Assembly (NCBI GenBank): GCA_024195265.1
Contig: JAJLRJ010000013.1
Span: 6,286,075 to 6,350,074 of the forward strand
Source: Dendrophyllia cribrosa
Lineage: Eukaryota; Cnidaria; Anthozoa; Scleractinia; Dendrophylliidae
Direction: 5' to 3'
DNA: 64,000 bases
Of the stretch, positions 6,501 through 57,504 are shown one piece after another; the stretch's first letter is position 1, and each line of letters starts with the position of its first letter. Under the pieces are notes generated by a model. That model did no database searches and was not told where the DNA came from. It worked only from the letters and a program-made list of their open reading frames with translations. Made by a program: the position numbers and the translations under genes.

Positions 6501-9500
6501 ACTCAGAGTTGCAAATATATATGTTTGAACAAGTCCACATTCTTTCTTTTTATATACATATTAATTTATATATATCGCTTTCATGTCGTTTATCTCTCTT
6601 TTATAGCAAACGCTACATTGGCTCCGTCGACGAACCCACCGACCACATATAATCCACCGACAACATATTACCCACCGTTCACAACTCAGAATCCATCACA
6701 AGGTAAAGAATAACTTGCATTCATTGTTAGATTGCTTAGGTCACACACAACAGAAAGAAACCATTTGTGTGGGAGAAAAGCTGGAAAGTAACTAAGTGTT
6801 ATTCAGACCCGAGTGCTACCGGACACATACGTCAAACGTTAGTCAACGAAGCTAGGCTAGTGTCACAAGTTAAAAGCTACCAAACCCTTAGGGTATTATG
6901 CAACCACCAGGAAATTGCAATAAATATATATTCAAAATTGTCATTCCACTCATATAAGACCTCATACATTTTTACTCAAAGAAATTGTCAAGCTTGTACG
7001 ATAGTGTACTGAAGAAGCACCAGCCGGCGAAACATACACAATGAGGGACTTGTGATTAAGTTCGCTGCTTGCTCCATTGATACATCCTACGTGCACACCA
7101 GTGATAGTTAAATTTGTGAAAATACGAAGAAAGGGAGAATCGTTTTTGTCATAGTTCAAAGGACATCCAGTATGTAGTTTCCCTTTTTGGCGATTATTTG
7201 GCAAGTTTAGGGCTTTCTAAAAAACAAAAAAAAATCGATTGCCTTACATTTTAACAATTTCAACGATGACTGGTGTGACATGCACACGTGCGCAAGTGAA
7301 CTATTATGATGACGATGATGATCATTATTATCATTTATTGTCAGAGTATCCACGATATTACAATACTAAAATTTGCCATACCATAACAAAAACAAAAGCT
7401 ATAAAATACAAAAACAAAAACAATGACAAAATGTAATATTTAAAATTTAACTTAAAACATTAGGTCATTCTTTTTGTGTTCGTCACTTGTGAGCTAAAAT
7501 GCCATCTGGAAAATACAACTAAATATGTAAGTTAACTTGACTTGATCTTTATTCATTATTCACAAACTACTTTTCTCGTTCAACAGGGTGTGGCTCTGTT
7601 ATCTCCAACACCCTTAAAAGTCCGGGATATCCAAGCAACTACCCAGCCAACATGGACTGTGTTTACAGGGTGCATATTCCTCATGGCATGGCGATGAGAA
7701 TTTACTTTAACCGTTTTGACGTGGAAAGTCATTCCTACTGCAGGTAAAGATTGGCTTTCAGATTTGTTTTTAAAGGTACTCAACGAATCGGACCGATTAT
7801 ATTGAAACATGGCACACGGAGATTTAGCGAACGTCAGCGTAAACGCACATTTTATAATATAATTGCATGAACCTAAATTGTTTAAAATTGACTTAAAGTA
7901 ATATAAACTGTTTCGAAAAAAATTCAAACACCGTACTGTTGAAGCTTCATGTGCGACCACGTTTCGTAAAAAAAAAAAACAATTAAGCGACCACCTTTCC
8001 TAAGCGACCACTTTTCCAAAATACCAAATTTCTTCCAGTCAAATTCAAACCACTATAGTCTAAACCTCTCCTAAGCGACCACTTTTCCAAAATACCAAAT
8101 TCCTTCTAGTCAAATCACTATGGTCCAAACCTATTGTAAGCGACCACCTCTCGTAAGCGACCACTTTTCCAAAATACCAAATTTCTTCCAGTCAAATTCA
8201 AATCACTATAGTCCAAACCTTTCATAAGCGACTACCTCGTAAGCGACCGCGATCACTTTCGTCGCTGGTGATTTTTATTTTTCTATTGTTTCGCCTCTGG
8301 AAAGCGACCACTTACACAAAATTCGATGGCACTGCAGACGCAAATTGAATCATTTGGTAACAGTTCAAGTCCAATAAAACGACATTTCGTCCTTTGCATC
8401 AAATATTCAATATGAAACAATATTTTGCACTGATAGGAGCTTTGTACATTAAAATTGCTATAGGTTCATATGATTCAGAGACGATTTCATATGATTTAAA
8501 GTAAAGTTACCTGTGGTCTGACCTTATGGTCTGTGGCCACCCTGTGGTCTGATCTTAGAAGCAAACTATGATTGCAAGAAAGCACAGTAACACCATCCCC
8601 TCGGTATGACCAATACCTTACGCATGCGCAAACCAAATTACCCTGGTAGTGGCAGCCATGGACAGCTGTTTCGTCCTATTTAGGACTCATCAGCATACAA
8701 TACCGATTGGATGGTGTAGTGTTACTGATGTCTGGCTTATAGTTAAGCAATAGAACACATTTTCTATGAGTTTACCGGCGTGATAAACCCACGCGGGATG
8801 TTGGGAGAACACGAGAAAAGCTTGTAAATCACGAGCCGCAGGCGAGTGATTTACAAGCTTTTCGAGTGTTCTCCCAACATCCCAAGTGGGTTTATAACGC
8901 CGGTAAACTCATAGAAAATGTGTTCTATTGCTTTTATGAAATAACTATGGAAAGCGTTTGGAAAGAGAGAACTTTGTTGTAGTTTTGTGCCGATCAAGTA
9001 GCTTATTCTCATTACATTCATCGGATGACGCGGGAAAACCAATCAAAGCGGCTGAAAGAATAAATGAACTTTACACGATGCCACTGACAAAGCTGCACTG
9101 ACAAATTCACGGGTTCAACGAAAGTGATGAAAAGTTTTAGCGCTTTGAAATTCGTCAGTTGAAATTTATCAGCTGAAAGAAGAAAATGTATTGAATGATT
9201 CAAAAGTTCTTTCAATTGGAAATCCAGAAAATTGTGTCCGGAATCTGCCGCCGCAAACCTGAATGTACGAGGAAAGTTTGGAAGCCTACAATTTTTATGT
9301 TGGATTCAAAGATTGCTTTCTTGTCAAGAATTTTTCAATTGGAATAAAGGTTAGTTCCAGAAACTCAGCTTCTGAAACTGTTTTCGACTTTATTTATTAC
9401 TTTGAAGTGTACAATGAAGCCCGTACTTCTCTACATTTTAAGTACTGAATGAAAACTAAGCTCATTGTTTTTAAGCCTACAGTTCTGAGAGTTAGATTGG

Positions 9501-11699
9501 TTTGATGGAACAAACTGAATTGTTTGATCATTTCATGGAAATAATTTGTTCAACCATAAACCTATAATGTTTGTTAGCTTCATTTTCTTCTTGCTAATTG
9601 ATCATCCTTGCTTGGACACATAATCAGAATTTAAACTGCATCCGGTACAAAAGTATTGCATTAAAAAATCTCAAAAACAAAACACGATAAAGCGTATAAA
9701 TGGATCGAATCGACGTAAAATAATTATCCTAAACAACAAAGCTATAAGCTTAAGCCTTGCTTTTTAATTCCACTGTGCAAATCCGTCTTATTTAGAAGTT
9801 ATCTTAGGATCTGTAAGAACATTTACAAAACTTCAGTTCAGTTAATTTCAATCGAAAATTTCCCGGCTCAGTTTGAAAGCCATTGTTTGCTCTTTGGGTT
9901 TCAAATTTTTTTAGCTTTTCACTAAACCTTCAGCTCAGCGAACTTCACAAAGTACATATCGAGGTTGTTTTGATTGTCATTGATCGCTGAAAATATATTC
10001 CTGTTGTTGATATCAGTTTTAAAATAAGCTTAGTGTTCTTTTGTCGATAAGCCATTTTTTGCTTCCGTACGTGGGAAATTTTTTATTTTTATTTTGTAGG
10101 TTTGAGCAGCAACTTATTGTTTACAAGAAACAAATCCTCTGTTCTCATCTTCTCAACAGACCACAATATGCAATAAGACAATAAACCGGCTCGAGTTGGG
10201 AAATTCTTTTTCCTCACCGTACGCTTGTGTTGATGCGGTAACGGAAAATTGAACTTTGTTTACTTTACAGTTTCTCTTGCGCGATTTTCTATGAGTTTAC
10301 CGGCACAATAGTCAATAGGTCTTTGACCAATCAGAACGCGCGTAGTATCTCAGTTATTTTATAGTTTCCCATAATAACTGACCACCTCCCATAAGCGACC
10401 ACCTCGACTTTGAAACTGTATTTTTATTCATTTTACTTATATAGGTATGACTATTTGGAGTTTTCCAATGAGAACAACCAGACCTTTGGAAAATACTGCG
10501 GTTATAAAACTGGACAAAGCGTTTATGTATCGGGACATTATGCTGTGATATCTTTTCATTCAGACTTCAGTTGGCAACGTAGTGGATATCGTTTAACTTT
10601 CTATTTTTACGGTAAGTACAATTACAATGCTATGTTACTTTTCCAGGGCTGAGCCTAATCTGTTCATTTCCTTTTTGTTGGTTTATTGTTTATTTTATAA
10701 TTATTCGACAACGTGAAGGTGGCTAGTGGTAGATAATTACCGGGCTGGAAAGTTGTGCGGTTAAATACGGTATTGGTCAAAGTTACTTAGAAAATATACA
10801 GTCACCAAAACTTGTTTTAGTGTATCCCAAACCAGTCATTTCAGATTTAGTTTTAGTCAAGAAGCAAACTATGTTGTTTTTAATATTTGCTACTTTACGC
10901 GGGAAAAATTGTTCTGGCTACTGCTTTAGAAGAAGACAAATTACAGTAAACGGTTGAAATGCGCCGCCTTATCGTCGCCACATTTAAATCGAACCATTTC
11001 ATGATCTTGCTATCAGAAGGTATTAAGCAGCTGGGTTTTTAGAAACCAAATCATCACGGTTGTCATTAGTACGACCGCCACAAAAACTAGCGTTTTGTGA
11101 CCCAAAGTAGTTGAGCGAGACCATACTGCAGTATTCAGGTGAGAAATTTATTTATATTTAGGTGAACTGTATAGTGTTTGGGACAACTACTCTTGAAGAT
11201 TGTAAACTTAGTATTTTCTAAAGATAACATTTGTACTGACTTAAATAAATTCAGGATGTTGCACAGTACCGTTGAGTTTACATGAATAATAAATACATTT
11301 GCTGACCTATTTATTGTATTTTCGTATGTTCTGAGCTTTCTATGCCTTTTGACAAACATTATGTTTTGCGTGTGTTTTTTTAAATCCAACTACTGGTCTG
11401 CCCTACCTAGGGACTCTCCTACCAATATTGCTATCTTATATTCTAATATTGCTATCTTATATTCCAATATTGCTATCTTATATCCCAATATTGCTATTTT
11501 ATATTCCAATATTGCTATTTTATATTCTAATATTGCTATCTTATATTCCGCTTTATGCGCATTCCTTATTCCTACTGAATACGGATAAAAACACGTGTAC
11601 ACAAACATGGTCCGAAACTCATAACAGCTATGTAATTTTGAATATCATTAAAAATAGTTCCTCCTGATGTTATTTGTTATTTTTAAATGTATATGACAA

Positions 11700-11744
<45 letters not shown>

Positions 11745-11849
11745 TGAATGTATCCGTTATTTTTGGGCAGTTGCCTGATGATTGATTCGAGAGAAGCATG
11801 AAACTCGGAGTTGCAAATATATGTGTTTGAACTAGTCCATATTCTTTCT

Positions 11850-11890
<41 letters not shown>

Positions 11891-12945
11891 AACACAATAA
11901 AGGACAAAACTAGTTTGATTCAATTAAACCTATATTTCAACCAGTTAAAGTGGTCTACATCAGGGTCACCCTGATGAAGACCACTTTAAGTGGTTGAAAT
12001 ATAGGTGTAATTGAATCAAACTAGTTTTTTCCTTTATTGTGTTAACATATATAGTTTTAGAGGAGTTATTTCAACTAGTGGATACTTGTGATAAATTATA
12101 TATATATATATATAGAAAGAAAGAAAGAATATGGACTAGTTCAAACACATATATTTGCAACTCCGAGTTTCATCCTTCTCTCGAAGCAATCATCAGGCAA
12201 CTGCCCAAAAATAACGGATACATTCAAGATATACAAATTTGAAAATTAGGAACAATACCTTCTAGCGTGACGTGTCAAGATACAATTGGTGAACAGCTTA
12301 AACAACGGTGTTCAATAGAAATTTTTTAGAATGTCTACAGGACGACGTCAGTTCATTTCTATTGTTGAGAGTTGAGTTAAGCTGTTCACCAATTGTATCT
12401 TGACACGTCACACTAGAAGGTATTGTTCCTAATTTTCAAATTTGTATATCTTGAATGTATCCGTTATTTTTGGGCAGTTGCCTGATGATTGCTTCGAGAG
12501 AAGCATGAAACTCGGAGTTGCAATTATATGTGTTTGAACTAGTCCATATTCTTTTTTCTATACAAAGCTCTGGATTATATCCATTGAGCACTTTTATAGC
12601 AGATGAAGAGTTCAATTTTTCCTCTACTAGTTATATATATATATAGGCTGAGTAAAAAGGTTTACACAAACGGTGAACTCTTCAGCAGAAGGATCCAAGG
12701 ATACGACGCCACCACGTGAATTTGTAGAGAAGTGTAATGAAAAACGATGGGGCGAACTTCTTACTGGTCCTGACAGGTTTTATAACGTTTCGGCCTTCGG
12801 CCTTCTTCAGAAATTGCTAAGAATTAAAAACTAAAAACTAAAAACTATGTAAAATGATAAAGTTATACAAGTTGTGACTTATATACGTTAAGCTACAAAA
12901 ACAAAAGAAAACGAGGTTACGTAACATAACAAAAGAACTAAATTA

Positions 12946-12995
<50 letters not shown>

Positions 12996-15900
12996 GTATA
13001 CCTGGATTTTTGAAAAGTAACCGTTCGTGAGTGTTGCTAGTCTTTTTTTTTTCTCGCCTTCGCTCCCTTTCCCTCTTCTCTCTCTCTTCTCTGCGGTGAT
13101 TTTCGGGCTGATCGGGGTCATAAAAAAACCTTGTTTGGGCTACTTGTAGTGAAATTGCTGTAATTTTCGTTGACCACCTTTTCAAAAATTCAGCTATATA
13201 TATATATATATATCGGTTTCATGTCGTTTATCTCTCTTTTATAGCGGCAAACGCTACATTGGCACCGTCGACGAACCCACCGACCACATATAATCCACCG
13301 ACAACATATTACCCACCGTTCACAACTCAGAATCCATCACAAGGTAAACAATAACTTGCATTTATTGTTAGATTGCTTAGGTCACACACAATAGAAAGAA
13401 ACCATTTGTGTGGGAGAAAAGATGGAAAGTAAACTAAGAGTTATCCAGACCCGAGTGCTACCGGCCACATACGTCAAACGTCAGTCAACGAGGCTAGGCT
13501 AGTGTCATCGAGTTAAAAGGGTTCCAAACCCTTAGGGTATTATGCAACCACAAGGAAATTACAATAAAAAATATCTTCGGAATTGTCATTCCGCTCATAT
13601 AAGACCTCATACATTTTTACTCAAAGAAATTGTTAAGCTTGTATGATAGTGTACTGAAAAGCCCATGTACACGATAAGGGACTTAATTGTGAATAAATTC
13701 GCTGCTTGCTCCATCCTACGTGCTCACCAGTCATAGTTAAATTTGTGAAAATACGAAGAAAGGGAGAATCGTTTTTGTCATAGTTCAAAGGACATCCGGT
13801 ATGTAGTTTCCCTTTTTGAGAATTATGCCTTCCCCTTTAAAGTGATGATTTTAGTTGGCGATTATTTGGCAAGTTTAGGGCTTTCTAAAAACAAAAAATT
13901 TTTTTTCGATTGCCTTACAATTTAACAATTTCAACGATGACTGGTGGCACACGTGTAGAAGTGAACTATTAATGATGACGATGAATATATTTATTATGAT
14001 TTCTTGTCAGTATCTTTTCTTGGAGTATCCACCATATTACAATAATAAAATTTGCTATACAATAACAAAAACAAAATGTAATATTTCAAATTTAACTGAA
14101 AACATTATATCATCCTTTTTGTGTTCGTCATTTGTGAGCTAAAATGCCATCTGGAAAATACAACTAAACATCTAAGTTAACTAGACTTGATCTTTATTCA
14201 TTATTCACAAACTACTTTTCTCGTTCAACAGGGTGTGGCTCTGTTATCTCCAACACCCTTAAAAGTCCGGGATATCCAAGCAACTACCCAGCCAACATGG
14301 ACTGTGTTTACAGGGTGTATATTCCTCATGGCATGGCGATGAGAATTTACTTTAACCGTTTTGACGTGGAAAGTCATTCCTACTGCAGGTAAAGATTGGC
14401 TTTCAGATTTGTTTTTAAAGGTGCTCAACGAATCGGACCGATCATATGGAAATATTTAGCGAACGTCAGCGTAAAAGCACATTTTTAATATAATTGCCTT
14501 AACCTAAATTGTTCAAAATTGACTAAAAGAAATTCATTTAACTGTTTCGAACAATTTCAAAAACCGTACTGTTGAACCTTCATGTGCGACCACGTTTCGT
14601 CAAAAAATTAAGCGACCACTTCTCCTAAACGACCACTTTCCTAAAATACCAAATTCCTTCTAGTCAAAGTAGTATAGTCCAAACCTCTCGTAAGTGACCA
14701 CTTCTCCTAAGCGACCACTTTTCCAAAATACCAAATTTCTTCTAGTCAAAGCAGTATAGTCCAAACCTCTCGTAAGTGACCACCTCTCCTAAGCGACCAC
14801 TTTTCCAAAATACCAAATTTCTTCTAGTCAAAGCAGTATAGTCCAAACCTCTCGTAATTGACCGCGATCACTTTCAACGCTGGTGATTTGATTTTTTCTA
14901 TTGTTTGAACCTCTGGAAAGCGACACTTACACATATTTCGATAACACTGCAGACGCAGGTGTTAAAGTACAAGTCCAATAAAACGAAAATTTTGTCCTTT
15001 GCATCAAAAATTCAATATGATACAGTATTTGCGCTGATAGGAGCTTTATACGTTGAAATCGCAGCCTATATGTTCATTTAGGTTCATATGATTCAGAGAC
15101 AATTTCATAACCTCTTATAAGCGACCACCTACCATAAGCGACCACCTTGACTTTGACGCATTTTGCGTGGTCACTTACGAGAAGTTCAAATGTATTTTTA
15201 TTCATTTTATTAATGTAGGTATGACTATTTGGAAATTTCCAATGAAAACAACCAGACCTTTGGAAAATACTGCGGTTATAAAACTGGACAAATCGTTTAT
15301 GTTTCGGGACATTATGCTGTGATATCTTTTCATTCAGACGGAGGTGTTCAACGTAGTGGATATCGTTTAACTTTCTATTTTTACGGTAAGTACAATCACA
15401 ATGCTATGTTACTTTTCCAGGGCTGAGCCTAATCTGTTCATTTCCTTTTTTTTGGTTTATTGTTTGTTTTATAATTATTCAACAACGTGGAGGTGGCTAG
15501 TGGTAGATAATTACCGGGCCGGAAAGCTGTGCGGTTAAATACGGTATTGGTCAAAGTTACTTAGAAAATATACAGTCACCAAAACTTGTTTTAGTGTATC
15601 CCAAACCAGTCATTTCAGATTTAGTTTTAGTCAAGAAGCAAAATATGTTGTTTTTAATATTTGTTACTTTACGGAGGAAAATTGTGCTGGCTACTGCTTT
15701 AGAGACAATAAACAGTAAAACGGTTGAAATACGCCCTTGTCGTCGCCACATTTAAATCGAACCATTTCATGATCTTGCTATTAGAAGGTATAAAGCAGCT
15801 GGGTTTTTAGAAACCAAATCATCATGCAGATCATGGTTGTCATTGGTACGACTGCCGGAAAAACTTGCGTTTTGTGACCGAGGGTAGTTGAGCGAGACCA

Positions 15901-28642: not shown

Positions 28643-31077
28643 GATCACGCGATTGGCGATTGTCCGAGCGATCAAAAGTGATGCTTCCGGCTCCGAGCTC
28701 ATAGTTTAGTAAAACATATTCATGTATCCTTTCGATATTTTATTACTAAAATCAGTTACTCGTCTCTTCCACCTTATATACCTAGAACAAAATGAACCCC
28801 GTTTCGGATAAAGCAAAAACGGCAGATTATCCCAGACAGAGGATTATTAATTTCCGGGCAACAAGCTTTCGTTTATAATTTGCGCTTTGTGGAGCCTCAG
28901 TAAAGAAACATAATTTTCCCCATTTTTTGTAATACCTTTAAGTTACTATGATCCCTTTTAAATTACAGTGTATTTTGTTGATCCTTCGCATACTAAATTA
29001 AGAATTTCCCCTAAACTATTTGCTCAAAAACAATTTCAGTAATATAATTAGCAATTTTAGACAGCATGGCGGTGTGTAAAAGCTTAGAGGTAAAACCTTA
29101 GAAGACAATCCATATGATAATAAAACAGCTTTTTTGTGAAATGTAAATTTCATTTGAAGTTTTTTTTTTTCTAAATCTCAGCTTTTTGAAGCACAACTCG
29201 GGAATAAAAGATAACCCTTTTTTGCAGTGGTTACCAAGACTTTATACAACACATAAAGAACCCAACTTGGCGCGGCAAGAAATCAAAGCTCGAACGCTGG
29301 ATCGATATTTTCAGACACACGGAAATAAACACATAAACCGACAATTAAAATATTGATGTTGTTTCCATGTCAACACGGTGTCGGTACAAAAAATTATAAT
29401 ACACGATATTGTTTTTACGGTCACGCAAGAAAATGTGGAAATAAAATAATTTTTCACTCAAAATATTAGCTTAAGTGGTTTGAGAGGCACGTTTTAAAAA
29501 GAATTAAATAAATCGTCTTTATTTCACGGATCACTAAAAGAACCTTCAGAGAGAAATTAATTCGGCGTCGAGATTTGCACGAATCGATAAAAACGCACAG
29601 CTGCTTGAAGAAACGTGCATCAAACCGTCGAAAATAAATTTATACGCACATATCTTGTTCTCCAGAGGGTTCTATATTTATACCATGTCGCACACAAACG
29701 CAACATATCGCTTCTTTTCAGACGTTTGTCGTGCGATAAATTTAGATTATGAAAACCTTTGAGCCTCAGAGACGCCAAATTAAAAGATGAATCTGCTTCG
29801 CTTTTTTCCTAGCTAGGGGGCGATGCAGACAGCTCTTAATAGCTGTCTCTTGTTCGATTGTTTGAAGTAATCGCCACTATTTAATCTCGCTTTGGTATCT
29901 CACCAGAAAAACGTGTAATGGGTCGTGTTTCGATAAATTTATCGATTACGTCCGTGCCAAAGGCCTAAATGCCGCTCTTATGTGTCGCGTCGCGTCGCAA
30001 CAAAACTCGAAATTTAACATCTAATTATTTTTTTCTTGCATCCTTTTAACATTAAAACGAATCCGTATAAGTACTTTTTTTACATAAGTATTTAATGCCT
30101 GAAGAAAGACAAGCAAAAGGAGTTCGCGGGCGCGACGTGAATACGGGTTTATATTTGCGAGGTAAACACAGATTGCGTGATGCGGGATAATAGGAGAATT
30201 TCCGGTGTAATTTTGTTATCAGCACTAGTTTATCAACAGGCATTTTGGAGCCAGCGTGCCGTGCCGATATGTCGGAAGCGTGTGATGAACAAAAGCTTTC
30301 AAGAGTCAGTAAAAAAAATTAATTTGCGTTTAACACGGGCGATATTTCACTTGGATTCAAAACACTTCCTTTTATACAGGAACACGGAGGTTAAAACAAT
30401 ACCGCCTTTTCCTCGGCAACTGAGGAATAATTTAAATTCGGCCTGCGAAAATCATTAAGCTGTGACTTGTAATTAATGTGCAACAGTGAGGAATCAAAAG
30501 CAAAAACTGAGACAATCGGCGAATAGAAGACGGAGAAAAACAGGAGTCGGATTTCACGCAGAAAGTGTTATGCGTTATGTAAACATTGCTGGCAATCTTC
30601 ACACTTTGATACAGCCTATAATTACTGGCAAATACGCGTTAATTCCGTAGCAGACGATTGCCGCTTTTCAAAGCCGTCATTGGGAGAATTGGTCGCTCAC
30701 AGTCAGGGATTTATTTTCAATGCAGATTCAAAACTGAAAGGTGTATCCTCGAGAGAGCTTTAGCGGCGATTTCCGCTTGCTGTAGACTGTCAGGAGCGAT
30801 CTGATAACAGCGGTTCTTGAAGACTCGTGTAATTAGCTGTGTGAAGGGAAATTGTAGCTTTGAATGCTTGGATATTTACCCGTGGCGATCCCTGGCGATA
30901 ACCAAGCATTCTTCTATGGGCTTATGAACTGGCATCAAGATAGCAAAGCGCATTTGTTGTTTGACAAAGTTGCGCGACAGTAAAGCTGTTCCTGCGTTTA
31001 TGACCCAAAAGAGGCAAGATCGACTCCACTTTAAGGCGTTTGTCAACATCGTATAAAGCCGTGTCGACGTTCGAAAA

Positions 31078-32040
31078 ATGGCGGACAAATTTGATACTTT
31101 GTCGAATGATTCCCAGTCGTTGCCTTATCCATATGAAGAGCAAGAGATGTACTCCGAAAACATTCCGGCGCACGCGATTTTTCAACTCATCGTGTTCACA
31201 GCTATCTTTATGGTTGGCTTCTTTGGAAACTGTATCGTCATTTACGGCGTTCTCCAGCAGGGACCTGCAAAGACCACCAGTAGCATATTCATAGCGAATC
31301 TTGCGCTCAGTGACTTGGCTGTGTTAGTGCTTAGCTTGCCTGTAGGATTGTTGCAAGAACTGGCATCGTGGCCCTTTGGCGAGATGGCGTGTAAGATCTT
31401 CTTTCCTCTCGGGGACGTTTTTCTGACCGTCTCTATTTTGACGTTGACGGCGATCGCGCTGGATCGCTACCGCGCAATTGTTACGCCGTTCAAGGAACGT
31501 TTTAGTAAAACACAAGCGAAAATCTGCGTTTTTGTCATCTGGGTTTGCTGTTACTTAATAGTTGGTATTCCAACTTCGTTCATTCTTAAACTTGTGTCCA
31601 CAAACGGAGTAAATATATGTTATCCATTCTGGGAAGGCGTGCTGGTGCGACAGATTCACAAGATCTTCATAGCCTGCTTAGCGACTTTACCACTGTTCCT
31701 TATTGGTTACTGTTATTTTCGAGTTGTTATAGCGCTGTGGAAGGTCAGAATAATCCATCGCGATTCCGCCAAGAACTCGCTAACAACGATTCGCCTGGAA
31801 CAGAAACGCAAACTCGTGAAAATGTTGATTATTATTGTAATCGCCTTCAGCGTGTGTCTGTTGCCCTACATAATTTTCGCCTTAGTCTTGGAATTTACCG
31901 GAATGGAACGAACTTCTTCCGTGAATGTAGGTCTGGTAGCGGTTTTGTCGTTGCTTTATGCAAATAGCGCTATCAACCCGTTAATTTTGTGTACAATGAG
32001 CAAAGATTACCGAAAAGGATTGAGGCCGTGCGGTTGTTAG
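31078..32040 (+). CDS. Class A (rhodopsin-like) G-protein-coupled receptor
   Basis: An intronless 320-residue frame with seven hydrophobic segments. TM1 has GFFGN (N51) and TM2 has LALSDLAV (D79). C105 before TM3 can pair with C181 in extracellular loop 2. TM3 ends in DRYRAIV (D129-R130-Y131), TM4 has W155, TM5 has P205, TM6 has CLLP (residues 260-263) and TM7 has NSAINPLIL (N300-P301). The N-terminus is short and acidic with an NDS sequon. The tail is short and ends CGC, a possible palmitoylation site. The start in AAAATGGCGG has good context. The DRYRAIV run recalls peptide-receptor groups, but the ligand cannot be told. Two departures from consensus are the missing Trp in CWxP and the missing Tyr in NPxxY. 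Confidence 0.92.
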   Translation: MADKFDTLSNDSQSLPYPYEEQEMYSENIPAHAIFQLIVFTAIFMVGFFGNCIVIYGVLQQGPAKTTSSIFIANLALSDLAVLVLSLPVGLLQELASWPFGEMACKIFFPLGDVFLTVSILTLTAIALDRYRAIVTPFKERFSKTQAKICVFVIWVCCYLIVGIPTSFILKLVSTNGVNICYPFWEGVLVRQIHKIFIACLATLPLFLIGYCYFRVVIALWKVRIIHRDSAKNSLTTIRLEQKRKLVKMLIIIVIAFSVCLLPYIIFALVLEFTGMERTSSVNVGLVAVLSLLYANSAINPLILCTMSKDYRKGLRPCGC

Positions 32041-32209: not shown

Positions 32210-32480
32210 CTCAATAGTTTTGATCTCATTGGTACACTTTAGAATTTCATTCACAGACTCAAAATTTTCAACCACCTTGTACAGCATAATAAACAGTACC
32301 ACAGGAAAGTACTGTTCAATAGCTTTCATTTGAACGGTCACACTTTTGGATTTCATCCACAGACCAGTCAAAAGTTAGAACCACCTTGTACAACATAATA
32401 AACAGTACGACAGGAAAGTGCTGCTCAGTAGCTTTCATTTGAACGGGCACACTTTGCTGCTGAACAATTACAATACAAAT
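32210..32480. repeat. 106-bp monomer repeat family, block 1
   Basis: Two to three units with the consensus pieces TTTCATTTGAATGGTCACAC, GGATTTCATCCACAGACTCA, AAAGTTAGAACCACCTTGTA and CAGCATAATAAACAGTACCA. It begins about 170 bp after the GPCR stop. Confidence 0.8.
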
Positions 32481-40910: not shown

Positions 40911-41095
40911 GCGGGGGTACACATGAATTCGAATGGAATTTTAAGAGGTTTAAAGAAGGGATAGAAGAAGGAAAATGATTTTTGGAACAACAACAGACAG
41001 TTGGTACCCACGCAAGAACACCCCAGGTTGCTAGTGGACTACGAGAATTTAGTTTTATCGACTGAGTCGATAAGGTAAATTGACCACCGTAAAAA

Positions 41096-41144
41096 GATTC
41101 AAATAGCTGACGTTTCGAGCGCTAGCCCTTCGTCGGAGCGAATC
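41096..41144 (-). ncRNA. Hammerhead-like ribozyme motif, left arm of Penelope-like remnant
   Basis: Minus strand: GATTC-GCT (stem I), CCGACGA (one substitution from CUGACGA), A, GGGC-TAGC-GCTC (stem II), GAA, ACGT (self-complementary stem III), C (cleavage residue), AGC, TATTT, GAATC (stem I). Both parts of stem I pair perfectly. The U-to-C core change probably abolishes activity. Confidence 0.5.
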
Positions 41145-41234
41145 AAGGAATTGTGGGTAGTGTGTGGTTTTATATAGTAAGCGGTGGAGCTACGCTATTG
41201 GTGGAAATTTGGTGACGTGAAAAACAAATGTAGA

Positions 41235-41468
41235 TTAGTTGAATGAAAAGCGTTCGTTGATTCCGTGGGGTTTGAGAGTGCCGATTTGAAAGATGATTTT
41301 TTGTTCTAGGTTTTTACGGCTTTCTGTGTTACCCTGGTGTAGGGAAAGGCCGCAGATTGTCATGTGTTGTTTAGAATGGTTAGTAAGATTAAAATGGCGC
41401 GCGACTGGTTTGGATGCGTCTTTGTCATTTTTTTCAACGTCTCGGAGATGTTCACGAAAACGGTCGCC
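41235..41468 (-). pseudogene. C-terminal fragment of Penelope-like GIY-YIG protein
   Basis: The minus strand is open for 77 residues to a TAA at 41235-41237. It reads FREHLRDVEKNDKDA, SKPVARHFNLTNHS, TICGLSL, LEQKIIFQIGTLKPHGINER. The run F+EHL...PVA+HF...HS...E...I..I.TL.P.GIN is, from memory, characteristic of the region around the GIY-YIG endonuclease at the C-terminus of Penelope-like reverse transcriptases. The GIY and YIG motifs and the reverse transcriptase are missing, so it is a 5'-truncated remnant. At 41473 it is joined to an inverted copy of its own 3' end. Confidence 0.65.
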
Positions 41469-41620
41469 CAGTCTTTCAAATCGGCACTCTCAAACCCCAC
41501 GGAATCAACGAACGCTTTTCATTCAACTAATCTACATTTGTTTTTCACGTCATCAAATTTCCACCAATAGCGTAGCTCCACCGCTTACTATATAAAACCA
41601 CACACTACCCACAATTCCTT

Positions 41621-41669
41621 GATTCGCTCCGACGAAGGGCTAGCGCTCGAAACGTCAGCTATTTGAATC
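41621..41669 (+). ncRNA. Hammerhead-like ribozyme motif, right arm of Penelope-like remnant
   Basis: Same sequence as 41096-41144 on the opposite strand. GATTC-GCT pairs with AGC-GAATC, and GAAACGTC follows stem II. The same CCGACGA core substitution is present, so it predates the arm duplication. Confidence 0.5.
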
Positions 41670-41809
41670 TTTTTACGGTGGTCAATTTACCATATCGACT
41701 CAGTCGATAAAACTAAATTCTCGTGTTTCATCCCCCCACCGACGCAGCACCACAGTTTCTCTAGAAACTAACCCCATTCATCTGCTAGTGGACTAGTTTG
41801 GTGTCCATC

Positions 41810-43455: not shown

Positions 43456-43839
43456 AATTAATCGCGTCTAAACAACGTGCGTATGATCAAACAAAACAAA
43501 ATTCAGTGTCTATGAATGGAATTAGACAGGCTAAATAAACAGCTTTCGGCTGTTTTGCGTTCTGAAACGTGATGTGAGGTTAAAAACCTCTCCATGGAAA
43601 ACAAAACGTTTGGGTTGGATTCTAAAAACTGGCAAAAATCAGGGTATTTTGCAAAAGTATGGCGATGATCCAAAAATAAGCTCTTGTTGTTTGACATTGC
43701 TATGTATGGGAGAATTGAACCCTTTCCGTATTTCCGTGTATTGTGGTCAGTGGACAAAATCGTCTGGTATGACGATTTAAAAGAAATCTCTTTAGCAGAG
43801 CTTACTTTCATGTGGCACCGTTTATTAAGCATGCTGTAC

Positions 43840-44060
43840 AAGGTGATTCTAACTTTTGAGTCTGTGGATGAAATCCTAAAGTGTGACCATTCAAATGAAA
43901 GCTACTGAGCAGTACTTTCCTATGGTACTGTTTATTATGCTGTAAAAAGTGGCTCTAACTTTTTGAGTCTGTGGATGAAATCATACTGTGTGACAATTCA
44001 AATGAAAGCTCTTCAGCAGCGGTTTCATGTGGCACTGTTTGTTTATCGGAATTTTTGGAC
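43840..44060 (+). repeat. 106-bp monomer repeat family, block 4
   Basis: Two reversed units: ACTTTTGAGTCTGTGGATGA, AGTGTGACCATTCAAATGAA, GCAGTACTTTCC and TACTGTTTATTATGCTGTA. Confidence 0.75.
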
Positions 44061-46654: not shown

Positions 46655-47672
46655 GCAAAATAATACTAATTATCATAAAATTTATAAACTTTTAACTCTG
46701 AATTTCACCAAGAATTCTTAATGGTTTGTGGAGCTATATCAAATACTCAAAAGAGTGTTTCATCAGGCATTCAAACACCTTGAAGTGGGTTAAAAACTGT
46801 GTTGTACTTGATATAATTATCATAAAGTGTCGCAACGTTTGCTTTTGATTTCTCCAAGAATTCTTGATGGTTTGAGAAGCTGTATCAAATACTCAAACGA
46901 GTGTTTCATCAGGTATTCAAACACCTTGAAGTGGGTTAAAAACTCTGTTGTACTTGATATAATTATCATAAAGTGTCGCAACGTTTGCTTTTGATTTCAC
47001 CAAGAATTCTTAATGGTTTGAGAAGCTGTATCAAATACTCAAACGAGTGTTTCATCAGGTATTCAAACACCTTGAAGTGGGTTAAAAACTCTGTTGTACG
47101 TGATATAATTATCATAAAGTGTCGCAACGTTTGCTTTTGATTTCACCAAGAATTCTTAATGGTTTGAGAAGCTGTATCAAATACTCAAACGAGTGTTTCA
47201 TCAGGTATTCAAACACCTTGAAGTGGGTTAAAAACTCTGTTGTACGTGATATAATTATCATAAAGTGTCGCAACGTTTGCTTTTGATTTCTCCAAGAATT
47301 CTTGATGGTTTGAGAAGCTATATCAAATACTTAAAAGAGTGTTTCATCAGGCATTCAAACGCCTTGAAGTGGGTTAAAAACTCTGTTGTACGTGATATAA
47401 TTATCATAAAGTGTCGCAACGTTTGCTTTTGATTTCTCCAAGAATTCTTGATGGTTTGAGAAGCTATATCAAATACTTAAAAGAGTGTTTCATCAGGCAT
47501 TCAAACGCCTTGAAGTGGGTTAAAAACTCTGTTGTACGTGATATAATTATCATAAAGTGTCGCAACGTTTGCTTTTGATTTCTCCAAGAATTCTTGATGG
47601 TTTGAGAAGCTATATCAAATACTTAAAAGAGTGTTTCATCAGGCATTCAAACACCTTGAAGTGGGTAAAAAA
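46655..47672. repeat. 146-bp satellite array, about seven units
   Basis: GTTGTAC(T/G)TGATATAATT recurs at 46801, 46947, 47093, 47239, 47385 and 47531, an exact 146-bp period. Each unit has AAGAATTCTTRATGGTTTG, GAGTGTTTCATCAGG and CACCTTGAAGTGGG. Units 2-4 share AAACGAGTG and TCAGGTATT, while units 5-7 share AAAAGAGTG and TCAGGCATT, so there are two subtypes in blocks. The last unit breaks at GTGGGTAAAAAAAAGG. Confidence 0.95.
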
Positions 47673-50279: not shown

Positions 50280-50625
50280 CAAGTAAAATCCTAAATTTCA
50301 TTTTGTAAGATATTGAAAAACAAATAGTACCATGCAAAAGTACGGCTGACGAGGTTTCATTTGAATGGTCACACCATGGGATTTCATCCACAGACTCAAA
50401 AGTTAGAACAAATGGCACCATACAAAAGCACTGCTGAAGAGGTTTCATTTGAATGGTCGCACCATAGGATTTCATCCACAGACTCAAAAGTTAGAACAAA
50501 TGGTACCATGCAAAAGCACTGCTGAAGAGGTTTCATATGAATGGTCACACCATAGGATTTCGTCCACAGACTCAAAAGTTTGAACAACACTATATGTCTC
50601 CATTATTGACTCTGGGAGTAGAAGG
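50280..50625 (-). repeat. 106-bp monomer repeat family, block 5
   Basis: Three units with TTTCATTTGAATGGTC(A/G)CAC, AGGATTTCATCCACAGACTC and AAAAGTTAGAACAAATGG, bordered by the inverted CCCAGAGTCAA-type end near 50610. Confidence 0.8.
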
Positions 50626-54800: not shown

Positions 54801-57504
54801 CAATATCTGGTCAATGTTAATGAATTTTTCCACCAAAATGGTCTTGAAAAGATCTACTCAATGACAACAGAAAATTATACCCCTGCTCTATGTGATGTTA
54901 TTGACAACCCCTCAAACTTTTCAATGTTTTTTCTTTTGGTACGTTATATAAGAGATAATTCATGTTATTCTACTCACTGAGAGCTGCAAAATAAGGTATA
55001 GTTTGAGTTGTACCTCGTAGCAGTATGACTAATTATTTCGTCTATAAAAAAGAAGGCACTTAGCCAAACATTTAGAACTGATTAGAACTCGTCCATGTGA
55101 TATCTCCACTTTAAGGCGGGGTAAACCTATGCCTTTTTTTTTTCCGCCGCTTAACACGGGTTTAATGAAAATATCTCGTTAACGTTTCAAGCAATCCAAA
55201 TACTCTATGCTTATTTCACGAATCGATGTTATGGGGTGTTTTGTAAATTTTGGGGGGATTTTTGAGCATGTTTGGGAAGGTATAGTGAAGATTTAATGAA
55301 GTTTAAAAATCAGAATTTGAAGTTAATAATTAATAGATGGAGCCAAAATAGTCCTCCATCAACCTGAAGTGCTCTGGCGTAGGACTAGGTATCAACTCTG
55401 TCTGTTGGTGTTCCAAAAATCATATTCTTTCTTCTATGCCTTCTTTAAACCTCTTAAAATTTCATTCAAATTCATGTTTACCTCCCCCTTAACCTTTATC
55501 GAGCAAACGTCGACGTCTTTTCTTGTCTTGTATTTTTTACACCTTAGTTCGCAAACATTGAAGTCTATCAAGTCACAGGAAACCGCAAAGACCCGAAACA
55601 GCAGCAGGAGGTTGCAGTAGACGTAAAGGTCTTAAAGGCAATGGAACACAAACTGTTCCTATCCTGGAGGGCCAGTTTTAAGGCGCAAGATGGCAGCATT
55701 AAAGAGATCTATGCACACCCTCAGGACGAGGAATGGTCGATGAACATCAAACGCGGGTTCGTGAATCTGCTCCAGGTCTCACCGCATTGGAACAATATGG
55801 AGGCAAATGGCAAACAATTTGTGACTCAGCACGAGGTTAGAAATAATTCAATGCAGTTATAAAAAGGTTCACTCCAATACGAAGTGATTGACATGCGAAA
55901 AAGGCGGAAGCTGGAAAATTGTTAAAAGAAAATAACGTCAAATCTCATTTTATAAAATATTGAAAAACAAATAATACCGCAGGATATACCTTCTCAACAG
56001 CTTTCACACGAATGGTCATATTTTAGACAGACTGAAAGGTTAGAACCGCATTTTACAGCAAAATATACATACCATTAGAACGTACTGTAAAATAGCTTCC
56101 ATTTGAATGGTAACACTGTAGGACTGATTTCATCCACCGACTCAAACGTAAGAGCTACCATGTACAGCATAATAAACAGTACCAAAGGAAAGTACTGCTC
56201 AGTAGCTTTTATTTGAATGGTAATACTTTAGGATTTCGTCCACAGACTCAAAAGTTAGAACCACCTTGTACAGCATAATAAACAGTGCCACAGGAAAGTA
56301 CTGCTCAGTAGCTTTCATTTGAATGGTCACACTTTAGGATTTCATCCACCGACTCAAACGTAAGAGCTACCATGTACAGCATAATAAACAGTACCAAAGA
56401 AACGTAGTGCTCAGTAGCTTTCATTTGAATGGTAACACTTGACCATTTCATTGGCAAAGACTTCTCGAGGTCTCAATACCAAGTCATTTTTCTTTCGCAA
56501 TCGTTTATTTGTCGAGCTGCATAAGTCTACGTAACCGCATGAAACTGACTCCAAGGAATATTCTTATTAAGTGAATCAGCCATATTTTCACGTAGGATCT
56601 GTGTGAAGACCCGTTATATCAAAGGAACAAAGCAAGGAAACGTATAAAACCACGGTTTAACAAACTATGTTAAAAAATGTACTCCGTTTCATAACCTGAT
56701 AAGTTTGCCTTTTCCTTTTCAGACCACCGCAGTGGGCGAGTGCCAAGTTTCCTACGTCATCGACGAGGACAACAAGCAGCAACAGGCAAAGGAGCAATTC
56801 CTAAAGATTACCAAAGTGATCAACTACAATAAATGCAGACAGCGCCCTGAATTTAGCCTAAACACCTTCTATGGACAGTGGTGTGAAGGCTGTAAACAGG
56901 TAAGGAAATCAAATGTAATCTTCTGAGACTAACACACATTAGTATATACTGAAACAGTGGATAGCATTGTTGGCGCGCTCTGATTGGCTACTGAAACTCG
57001 GAATAGCAAGTGCTATTCACCTCCCAGCAATTTGCGCGCGAAAATTGTAATCGTTGACAGGAATAAATGAGTTAAAAAGCATCATTTTCGTTATATTGTC
57101 TCACTGTTTCAGTATATACTAAAACTTTCGCGGCTCGGTAAATATCCACCACTACCCCACCTACACTGAGGTGAATAGTTGTTAAATATACAACATTAAA
57201 ATGAAGCTCAGAAGGCCTAAATCGTCTTAAAAATTCGTATTCAACTAGACTAAAATTTCGCCTCAAACTTTCTTAAAATCTGAACGTTTGAAAATAATAC
57301 TTTTGTTTTCGAAAGGCTAAAAATTTTTATTTTGGGTTCGAAATAAGGTCAGCTAGGTTTTTAGGAAAGTTGAAAGTAGCTGAAATATTCAGCTGAAAGA
57401 ACTAAAGAGCTCATATTGTATTATTTTTCACATAGTTTCCTTTAAATGCACTAAAATGATATGCAAAAACAGTACAGGCAGTTCCATGCGTTTTCCTAAT
57501 CGTC

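What the first reader, a model, noticed from the sequence alone, without database searches (positions are those of the whole stretch)
8645..8704. Complete type I hammerhead ribozyme antisense to a CUB-gene intron
Seen directly: on the minus strand all core nucleotides of the hammerhead (CUGAUGA, GAA, U-C at the cleavage site) occur in order, with a 4-bp stem II (GUCC/GGAC), a self-complementary stem III (ACAGCUGU) and a two-part stem I (UAUG/CAUG, including one G-U pair, and GGUA/UACC). Known: this layout matches type I hammerheads of Schistosoma satellites, newt satellite RNA and animal retrozymes or Penelope-like elements. Inference: this small element (8585-8727) was mobile, because the duplicated copy of the intron lacks the roughly 1.9-kb block that contains it.
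Basis: partly seen in the sequence, partly recalled or inferred. Interest (0 to 1): 0.85.

Follow-up and report, generated by a model that had tools for sequence, protein, structure and literature searches.

The report
Broken coral retrozyme with hammerhead ribozyme
The window holds a real self-cleaving RNA motif (a hammerhead ribozyme) left over from a small jumping element with many copies in this coral-like genome, and the way the copies are built hints at which enzyme moves them.

Summary
A type I hammerhead (RF00163, 42.6 bits, E 1.6e-7, the only Rfam match over its cut-off in the window) lies at 8699-8655, minus strand, antisense to a CUB-domain gene. It is not a self-contained 143-bp element but a worn copy (about 8562-8744) of a dispersed family with a 340-nt repeating unit, like the retrozymes reported from animals, in an anthozoan genome. 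Copies consist of one or two cDNA-like arms with variable 5' breaks. All 26 two-armed copies examined are head to head. Target-site duplications are enriched: 17 of 56 copies against 0.4% of 550 controls. A second family (527-nt unit) is sharper: in 15 of 17 two-armed copies the arms start at two different fixed sites, one each, and all 15 have a duplication of at least 10 nt. This resembles the published signature of Penelope-like elements, and Penelope-type reverse transcriptase plus GIY-YIG frames occur in this genome. In the window copy the break falls at the ribozyme's edge, so stem I is chimeric. Cleavage was not testable.

The parts
8655..8699 (-). Type I hammerhead ribozyme motif; expected cut between 8661 and 8660
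   Evidence: RF00163 42.6 bits, E 1.6e-7; core read by eye
8562..8696 (-). Direct arm of the insertion: 3'-anchored piece of the family unit, broken off at its 5' side at the edge of the ribozyme
   Evidence: alignment to family copies
8702..8744 (+). Inverted arm: short piece of the same 3' end, head to head with the direct arm
   Evidence: aligned over 8702-8738, score 36 against at most 26 in 500 mononucleotide shuffles; 8739-8744 by eye
8697..8701 (.). Junction between the two arms; supplies part of the chimeric stem I
   Evidence: comparison with relatives
7744..10444 (+). Intron of a CUB-domain gene that holds the insertion in antisense
   Evidence: splice sites by eye; joined flanking exons match PF00431, 89 bits
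8492..10373 (.). Block absent from the duplicated intron (copy 2 aligns up to 15109 and again from 15117); larger than the insertion

Best explanation
The hammerhead sits in a decayed copy of a non-autonomous retroelement of the metazoan retrozyme kind (unit about 340 nt) that was inserted by a Penelope-type machinery. Shown here: the family is dispersed; some copies hold more than one unit in tandem; copies are one or two arms, usually sharing a 3' end, with variable 5' breaks; two-armed copies are head to head; target-site duplications, mostly 10-14 nt, are enriched. Inferred: tandem transcripts are cut by the hammerhead and the monomer may be circularised (published for the coral Acropora millepora); a Penelope-type enzyme makes a staggered cut, both DNA 3' ends prime reverse transcription at fixed internal sites downstream of the ribozyme, and the two cDNAs are joined head to head. 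In the window copy one cDNA stopped at the 5' edge of the ribozyme and the other after about 43 nt. The core survived but stem I became chimeric, so I expect weak or no cleavage from this copy, and no part in the CUB gene, whose pre-mRNA carries the other strand.
For: RF00163 match. Dispersed copies: 45 matches listed, 40 of 993 candidates scored; 83 exact cores. Tandem unit of 340 nt and arms longer than one unit, such as 668 nt in L071. [-][+] order in 26 of 26 distinct two-armed copies. Duplications of score 8 or more in 17 of 56 copies against 0.4% of 550 mismatched flank pairs; score 11 or more in 11 of 56 against 0. Family B: 15 of 17 two-armed copies have one arm from each of two start sites, all 15 with a duplication of 10 nt or more; 1 of 20 one-armed copies has one. 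Published Penelope-like features: inverted pLTRs, 8-10-bp duplications, optional tail on one inverted pLTR (PMC3846280 passages); the anole protein extends both strands and starts at two internal sites (PMC11167929 parts 1-2 of 4). In this genome 150 GIY-YIG matches were scored; of 12 adjacent pairs within 5 kb, 11 are [-][+]; one has an open reverse transcriptase frame upstream.
Against: Family A does not show the two-site rule, and in 9 of 26 two-armed copies at least one outer end is not at the common 3' site (L016, L017, L020, L025, L026, L065, L068, L079, L091). Half of the two-armed family A copies (13 of 26) gave no duplication of score 8 or more, nor did the window copy. The tail of family B, about 94 nt, is longer than the 31 bp reported for Penelope. 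Penelope hammerheads are described as minimal variants, these are closer to canonical ones. In vitro the hammerhead was not needed for insertion by the anole element (PMC11167929). No circular RNA was shown; multi-unit arms also fit a linear tandem RNA. No complete Penelope-like element was read here. Samples were chosen by similarity or ribozyme score.
Confidence: 0.75

Rival explanations
1. A MITE-like DNA transposon with terminal inverted repeats that happens to carry a hammerhead and is moved by a transposase.
For: Ends of the window copy and of many relatives look like inverted repeats; copies are short and dispersed.
Against: The inverted parts differ in length and join at different points from copy to copy, and many copies lack one arm; duplications are not of one length; arms can exceed one unit.
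Confidence: 0.06
2. The same retrozyme family, but inserted by a LINE-type enzyme (single-strand target priming), the head-to-head copies being later or accidental events such as twin priming.
For: One-armed, 5'-truncated copies exist in both families; Nematostella hammerhead repeats with 15-bp duplications were compared to LINE insertions (PMC4918200 passages).
Against: In family B duplications go with two-armed copies (15 of 17) and not with one-armed ones (1 of 20), the opposite of ordinary LINE copies; in 15 of 17 the two arms use different start sites. In twin priming, as I recall it, the inverted part comes from further 5' in the RNA, whereas here both arms usually hold the same 3' end.
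Confidence: 0.14
3. The window hammerhead is kept by selection as an antisense regulator or processing site of the CUB gene.
For: The core is intact in a worn copy.
Against: It belongs to a dispersed repeat; stem I is weaker than in most relatives; the duplicated intron lacks it; it lies on the strand opposite to the gene.
Confidence: 0.03

Closest known systems
Metazoan non-LTR retrozymes (Cervera & de la Pena 2020, PMC7229834, parts 1-4 of 6 read)
   Same: Type I hammerhead once per unit, tandem units of a few hundred bp, dispersed in an anthozoan genome, target-site duplications longer than 4 bp.
   Different: The window copy is a single broken unit. Head-to-head arms are not described in the parts I read. 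The coral example has 220-240-bp units; here 340 (family A) and 527 (family B).
Penelope-like elements (PMC3846280 passages; PMC11167929 parts 1-2 of 4)
   Same: Head-to-head inverted ends, short duplications, a tail on one arm in family B, reverse transcription starting downstream of a hammerhead.
   Different: No protein-coding frame was seen in the element; the tail of family B is about 94 nt rather than 31; the ribozyme is nearer to the canonical form.
Rfam Hammerhead_1, RF00163
   Same: Full model matched; core and stems II and III as in the model; loop II UAAAUA against CAAAUA.
   Different: The two outer stem-I pairs of the model are not standard pairs in the window copy.

Membership tests
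Type I hammerhead ribozyme (RF00163) | Covariance score over the curated cut-off, catalytic core in order | tested here: met
   42.6 against 34 bits; core by eye
Type I hammerhead ribozyme (RF00163) | Loop 1-loop 2 tertiary contact | tested here: inconclusive
   Stem I and its inner loop are chimeric in the window copy; minimum-energy folds of the window stretch and of four relatives alike do not show the ribozyme fold, so folding does not decide
Type I hammerhead ribozyme (RF00163) | Self-cleavage | not testable with these tools
   needs a bench assay
Metazoan non-LTR retrozyme | Tandem units of about 150-450 bp, each with a type I hammerhead | tested here: met
   340-nt unit in relatives; the window copy itself holds less than one unit, so met by the family, not by this copy
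Metazoan non-LTR retrozyme | Target-site duplications longer than 4 bp where present | tested here: met
   family: 17 of 56 copies; the window copy itself has only an inconclusive AAGC/AAGCAA by eye
Metazoan non-LTR retrozyme | Expression as linear and circular RNA | not testable with these tools
   no RNA data
Penelope-like element (autonomous) | Reverse transcriptase and endonuclease frame in the element | tested here: not met
   the 183-bp window insertion has no room for one; the six stop-to-stop frames of 130 aa or more in the window do not cover it
Penelope-like element (insertion structure) | Head-to-head inverted ends, short duplication, tail on one arm | tested here: met
   family B, 15 of 17 two-armed copies; family A head to head in 26 of 26 but without the two-site rule
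MITE / DNA transposon | Constant terminal repeats and fixed-length duplication | tested here: not met
   variable arm lengths and junctions, variable duplications

The most novel reading that the evidence does not exclude
Animal retrozymes are inserted by Penelope-type enzymes through dual-strand priming: a staggered cut of about 12 bp, each DNA end priming reverse transcription at its own start site on a hammerhead RNA that is often more than one unit long (circular or multimeric), leaving two head-to-head arms with one tail. The one-site-per-arm rule of family B (15 of 17, all 15 with a duplication) would be the genomic record of a dimeric enzyme at work.
Probability: 0.6. Interest if true: 0.65.

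Novelty: new member of a known kind. Interest (0 to 1): 0.42.

Why it matters
Which enzyme moves animal retrozymes is open: their discoverers call Penelope-like elements a strong candidate and leave LINEs possible (PMC7229834). The insertion structure seen here can be read from any genome and makes that question directly testable. The hammerhead in the window is itself ordinary: more than 6000 type I motifs are reported from the coral Acropora millepora (PMC7229834).

Tried and rejected
DNA-transposon (MITE) reading: rejected because arm lengths and junctions vary and duplications are not of one length. Single-ended LINE-like insertion as the whole story: does not explain the [-][+] pairs or the link of duplications to two-armed copies in family B. 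RNA folding as evidence for activity: dropped, since the minimum-energy folds of the window stretch and of four relatives alike lack the ribozyme fold; the whole element folds stably (z -3.5; z -3.9 for 8585-8727), as expected of inverted arms. A cluster of 5' breaks just upstream of the ribozyme in family A was not pursued, because that sample was chosen for having the ribozyme. A sequence search against solved structures with the reverse transcriptase piece gave only a chance match (E 0.65). ARAGORN found no tRNA in the window.

Rows dropped before counts: L062, L067, L077 and L082 (same places as L018, L017, L076 and L071); L014 and L015, which look like one insertion in a duplicated segment, stayed as two. 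In one search, L036, L038, L057 and L059 were counted with L035, L037, L056 and L058, and L093 gave no usable cluster. The Fisher test (15 of 17 against 1 of 18, p 6e-7) used a hand count of one-armed copies; my recount is 1 of 20. My note (12 of 12) is superseded.

Full report
WHAT IS THERE. The window encodes a type I hammerhead on the minus strand at 8699-8655: RF00163, 42.6 bits against a cut-off of 34, E 1.6e-7 for the whole window, the only one of 4227 Rfam families to reach its threshold (same match on 301 bases). By eye the core CUGAUGA / GAA / UC^C is in place, stem II is GUCC/GGAC with loop UAAAUA, stem III is the self-complementary ACAGCUGU, and the expected cut lies between 8661 and 8660. 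Stem I is short: UAUG/CAUG with one G-U; the two outer model pairs are not standard pairs.

WHERE IT SITS. It lies in an intron (7744-10444, splice sites by eye) of a plus-strand gene whose flanking exons, joined, match the CUB domain (PF00431, 89 bits), so it is antisense to the gene. The neighbouring copy of the gene has the same intron without 8492-10373. That block is about ten times longer than the element and includes a separate foldback element at 8745-8933; its absence cannot be read as the empty site of the hammerhead element.

A DISPERSED FAMILY. BLAST of 8585-8727 in the window's own genome (627 Mb, 22 contigs) listed 45 matches, with 40 of 993 first-look candidates scored, so this is a lower bound. 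The exact ribozyme core, with one N and one Y, occurs 83 times and the reversed control 0 times. Of 30 fetched loci, 27 hold an RF00163 match over the cut-off (15 of 15, 12 of 15), 26 of them at the aligned copy; in L009 the match is elsewhere in the locus and the core of the aligned copy is broken.

ARMS, NOT TERMINAL REPEATS. Aligned to real copies, the loci consist of one or two arms that usually share a 3' end some way downstream of the ribozyme and break off at variable 5' points. Loci fetched with the upstream part of L018 show that the sequence closes on itself after 340 nt in L018 and that arms can exceed one unit, for example 668 nt in L071. Of the loci, 26 distinct ones have two arms, and in all 26 the order is [-][+], head to head; none is [+][-]. 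By my reading both outer ends fall at the common 3' site in 17 of these 26; in L016, L017, L020, L025, L026, L065, L068, L079 and L091 at least one does not. The window copy fits: a direct arm 8696-8562 (minus) and an inverted arm 8702-8744 (plus), the latter aligned over 8702-8738 to the 3' end of L010 with a score of 36, where 500 mononucleotide shuffles reached at most 26. Its 5' break falls at the edge of the ribozyme: most relatives read GCCATG CTGATGA, the window copy TATG CTGATGA after the junction. Hence its outer stem I is chimeric.

TARGET-SITE DUPLICATIONS. With one rule for all, 17 of 56 family A copies have a duplication of score 8 or more, against 0.4% of 550 mismatched flank pairs; for score 11 or more, 11 of 56 against 0 of 550. 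From the same table, 13 of 26 two-armed copies and 4 of 30 others reach score 8. The window copy (listed there as one-armed, since its short inverted arm was missed) has none; its only candidate by eye is AAGC/AAGCAA, which I call inconclusive.

A SECOND FAMILY MAKES THE RULE SHARPER. The RF00163 search of the genome gave 73 matches, 72 over the cut-off, with 74 of 97,571 candidates scored. Its best hits belong to another family, B, with a 527-nt unit in L058/L059. From 40 loci (30, 10), 17 distinct two-armed copies remain. In 15 of 17 one arm ends at unit position 128-146 and the other at 223-240, and all 15 have a duplication of 10 nt or more. The exceptions (L039, whose second arm ends at neither site, and L098, whose arms both end near 232) have none. 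Of 20 one-armed copies by my recount, 1 has one. A Fisher test on an earlier count (1 of 18) gave p 6e-7. On the first 26 distinct loci, 13 had 10 nt or more against 0 of 496 mismatched pairs.

HOW IT MOST LIKELY WORKS. Penelope-like elements are known for inverted pLTRs, 8-10-bp duplications and an optional tail on one of the inverted pLTRs (PMC3846280, passages). In vitro, the anole Penelope protein cuts and extends both strands and starts reverse transcription at two adjacent internal sites; hammerhead mutants still inserted (PMC11167929, parts 1-2 of 4). Family B shows that structure, and family A most of it, without a protein-coding frame that I saw. The genome also has such enzymes: 150 GIY-YIG matches were scored of 3990 candidates (the family itself is general and also rings in 12 of 14 control genomes). 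Of 12 adjacent pairs within 5 kb, 11 are [-][+] and 1 is [++]. The one stretch that I could read upstream of a GIY-YIG match is an open 400-residue frame with a reverse transcriptase domain (E 2e-11), in the same frame as the match; about 300 bases between them were not read. Many of its listed relatives carry PF00078, PF01541 and PF26215. I infer that a Penelope-type enzyme inserts these hammerhead RNAs from both ends of a staggered cut. That the RNA was circular is not shown: multi-unit arms also fit a linear tandem transcript.

KNOWN OR NEW. Metazoan retrozymes with type I hammerheads are known: Acropora millepora is reported to have more than 6000 type I motifs, 1508 of them canonical, found in 220-240-bp repeats (PMC7229834, parts 1-4 of 6); Nematostella repeats have 15-bp duplications (PMC4918200, passages). 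Penelope-like elements or LINEs have been proposed as movers (PMC7229834; PMC7761336 passages; PMC11722881 passages). My searches (open-licence papers, mostly seen as listings; no supplements) showed no paper that describes head-to-head arms in retrozymes; that is no proof that none exists. The window element is a new member of a known kind; the insertion structure is what a specialist may not know.

LIMITS. Samples were small and chosen by similarity or ribozyme score. Family A does not show the two-site rule. No complete Penelope-like element was read. No RNA or biochemical data were at hand.

Noticed in passing
L031-L060, L092-L101: A second hammerhead family (B, 527-nt unit, 56.2-bit RF00163 hits) with two alternative 3' ends about 94 nt apart, usually one per arm.
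   Followed up: partly
8745-8933: Foldback element (arms 93 nt, 92% complementary, 3-nt loop) that begins at the base after the hammerhead insertion ends.
   Followed up: no
46702-47672: Tandem array, period 146, about 6.7 copies, 97% matches.
   Followed up: no
32234-32455, 43804-44040, 50319-50587, 56027-56451: Arrays of a related 88-109-bp minisatellite repeated across the window.
   Followed up: no
41041-41724: Inverted repeat with 253-nt arms, 99% complementary, 178 nt apart.
   Followed up: no
7414-15494: Tandem duplication in the CUB gene; 10414-10720 and 15188-15494 are 93% identical.
   Followed up: partly
L009 1474-1662: A family copy with nearly the same arm junction as the window copy but a broken ribozyme core; another RF00163 match (48.2 bits) lies at 2156-2200 of the same locus.
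   Followed up: no
31057-32040: Single-exon GPCR frame, 82% identical to an Oculina patagonica protein.
   Followed up: yes
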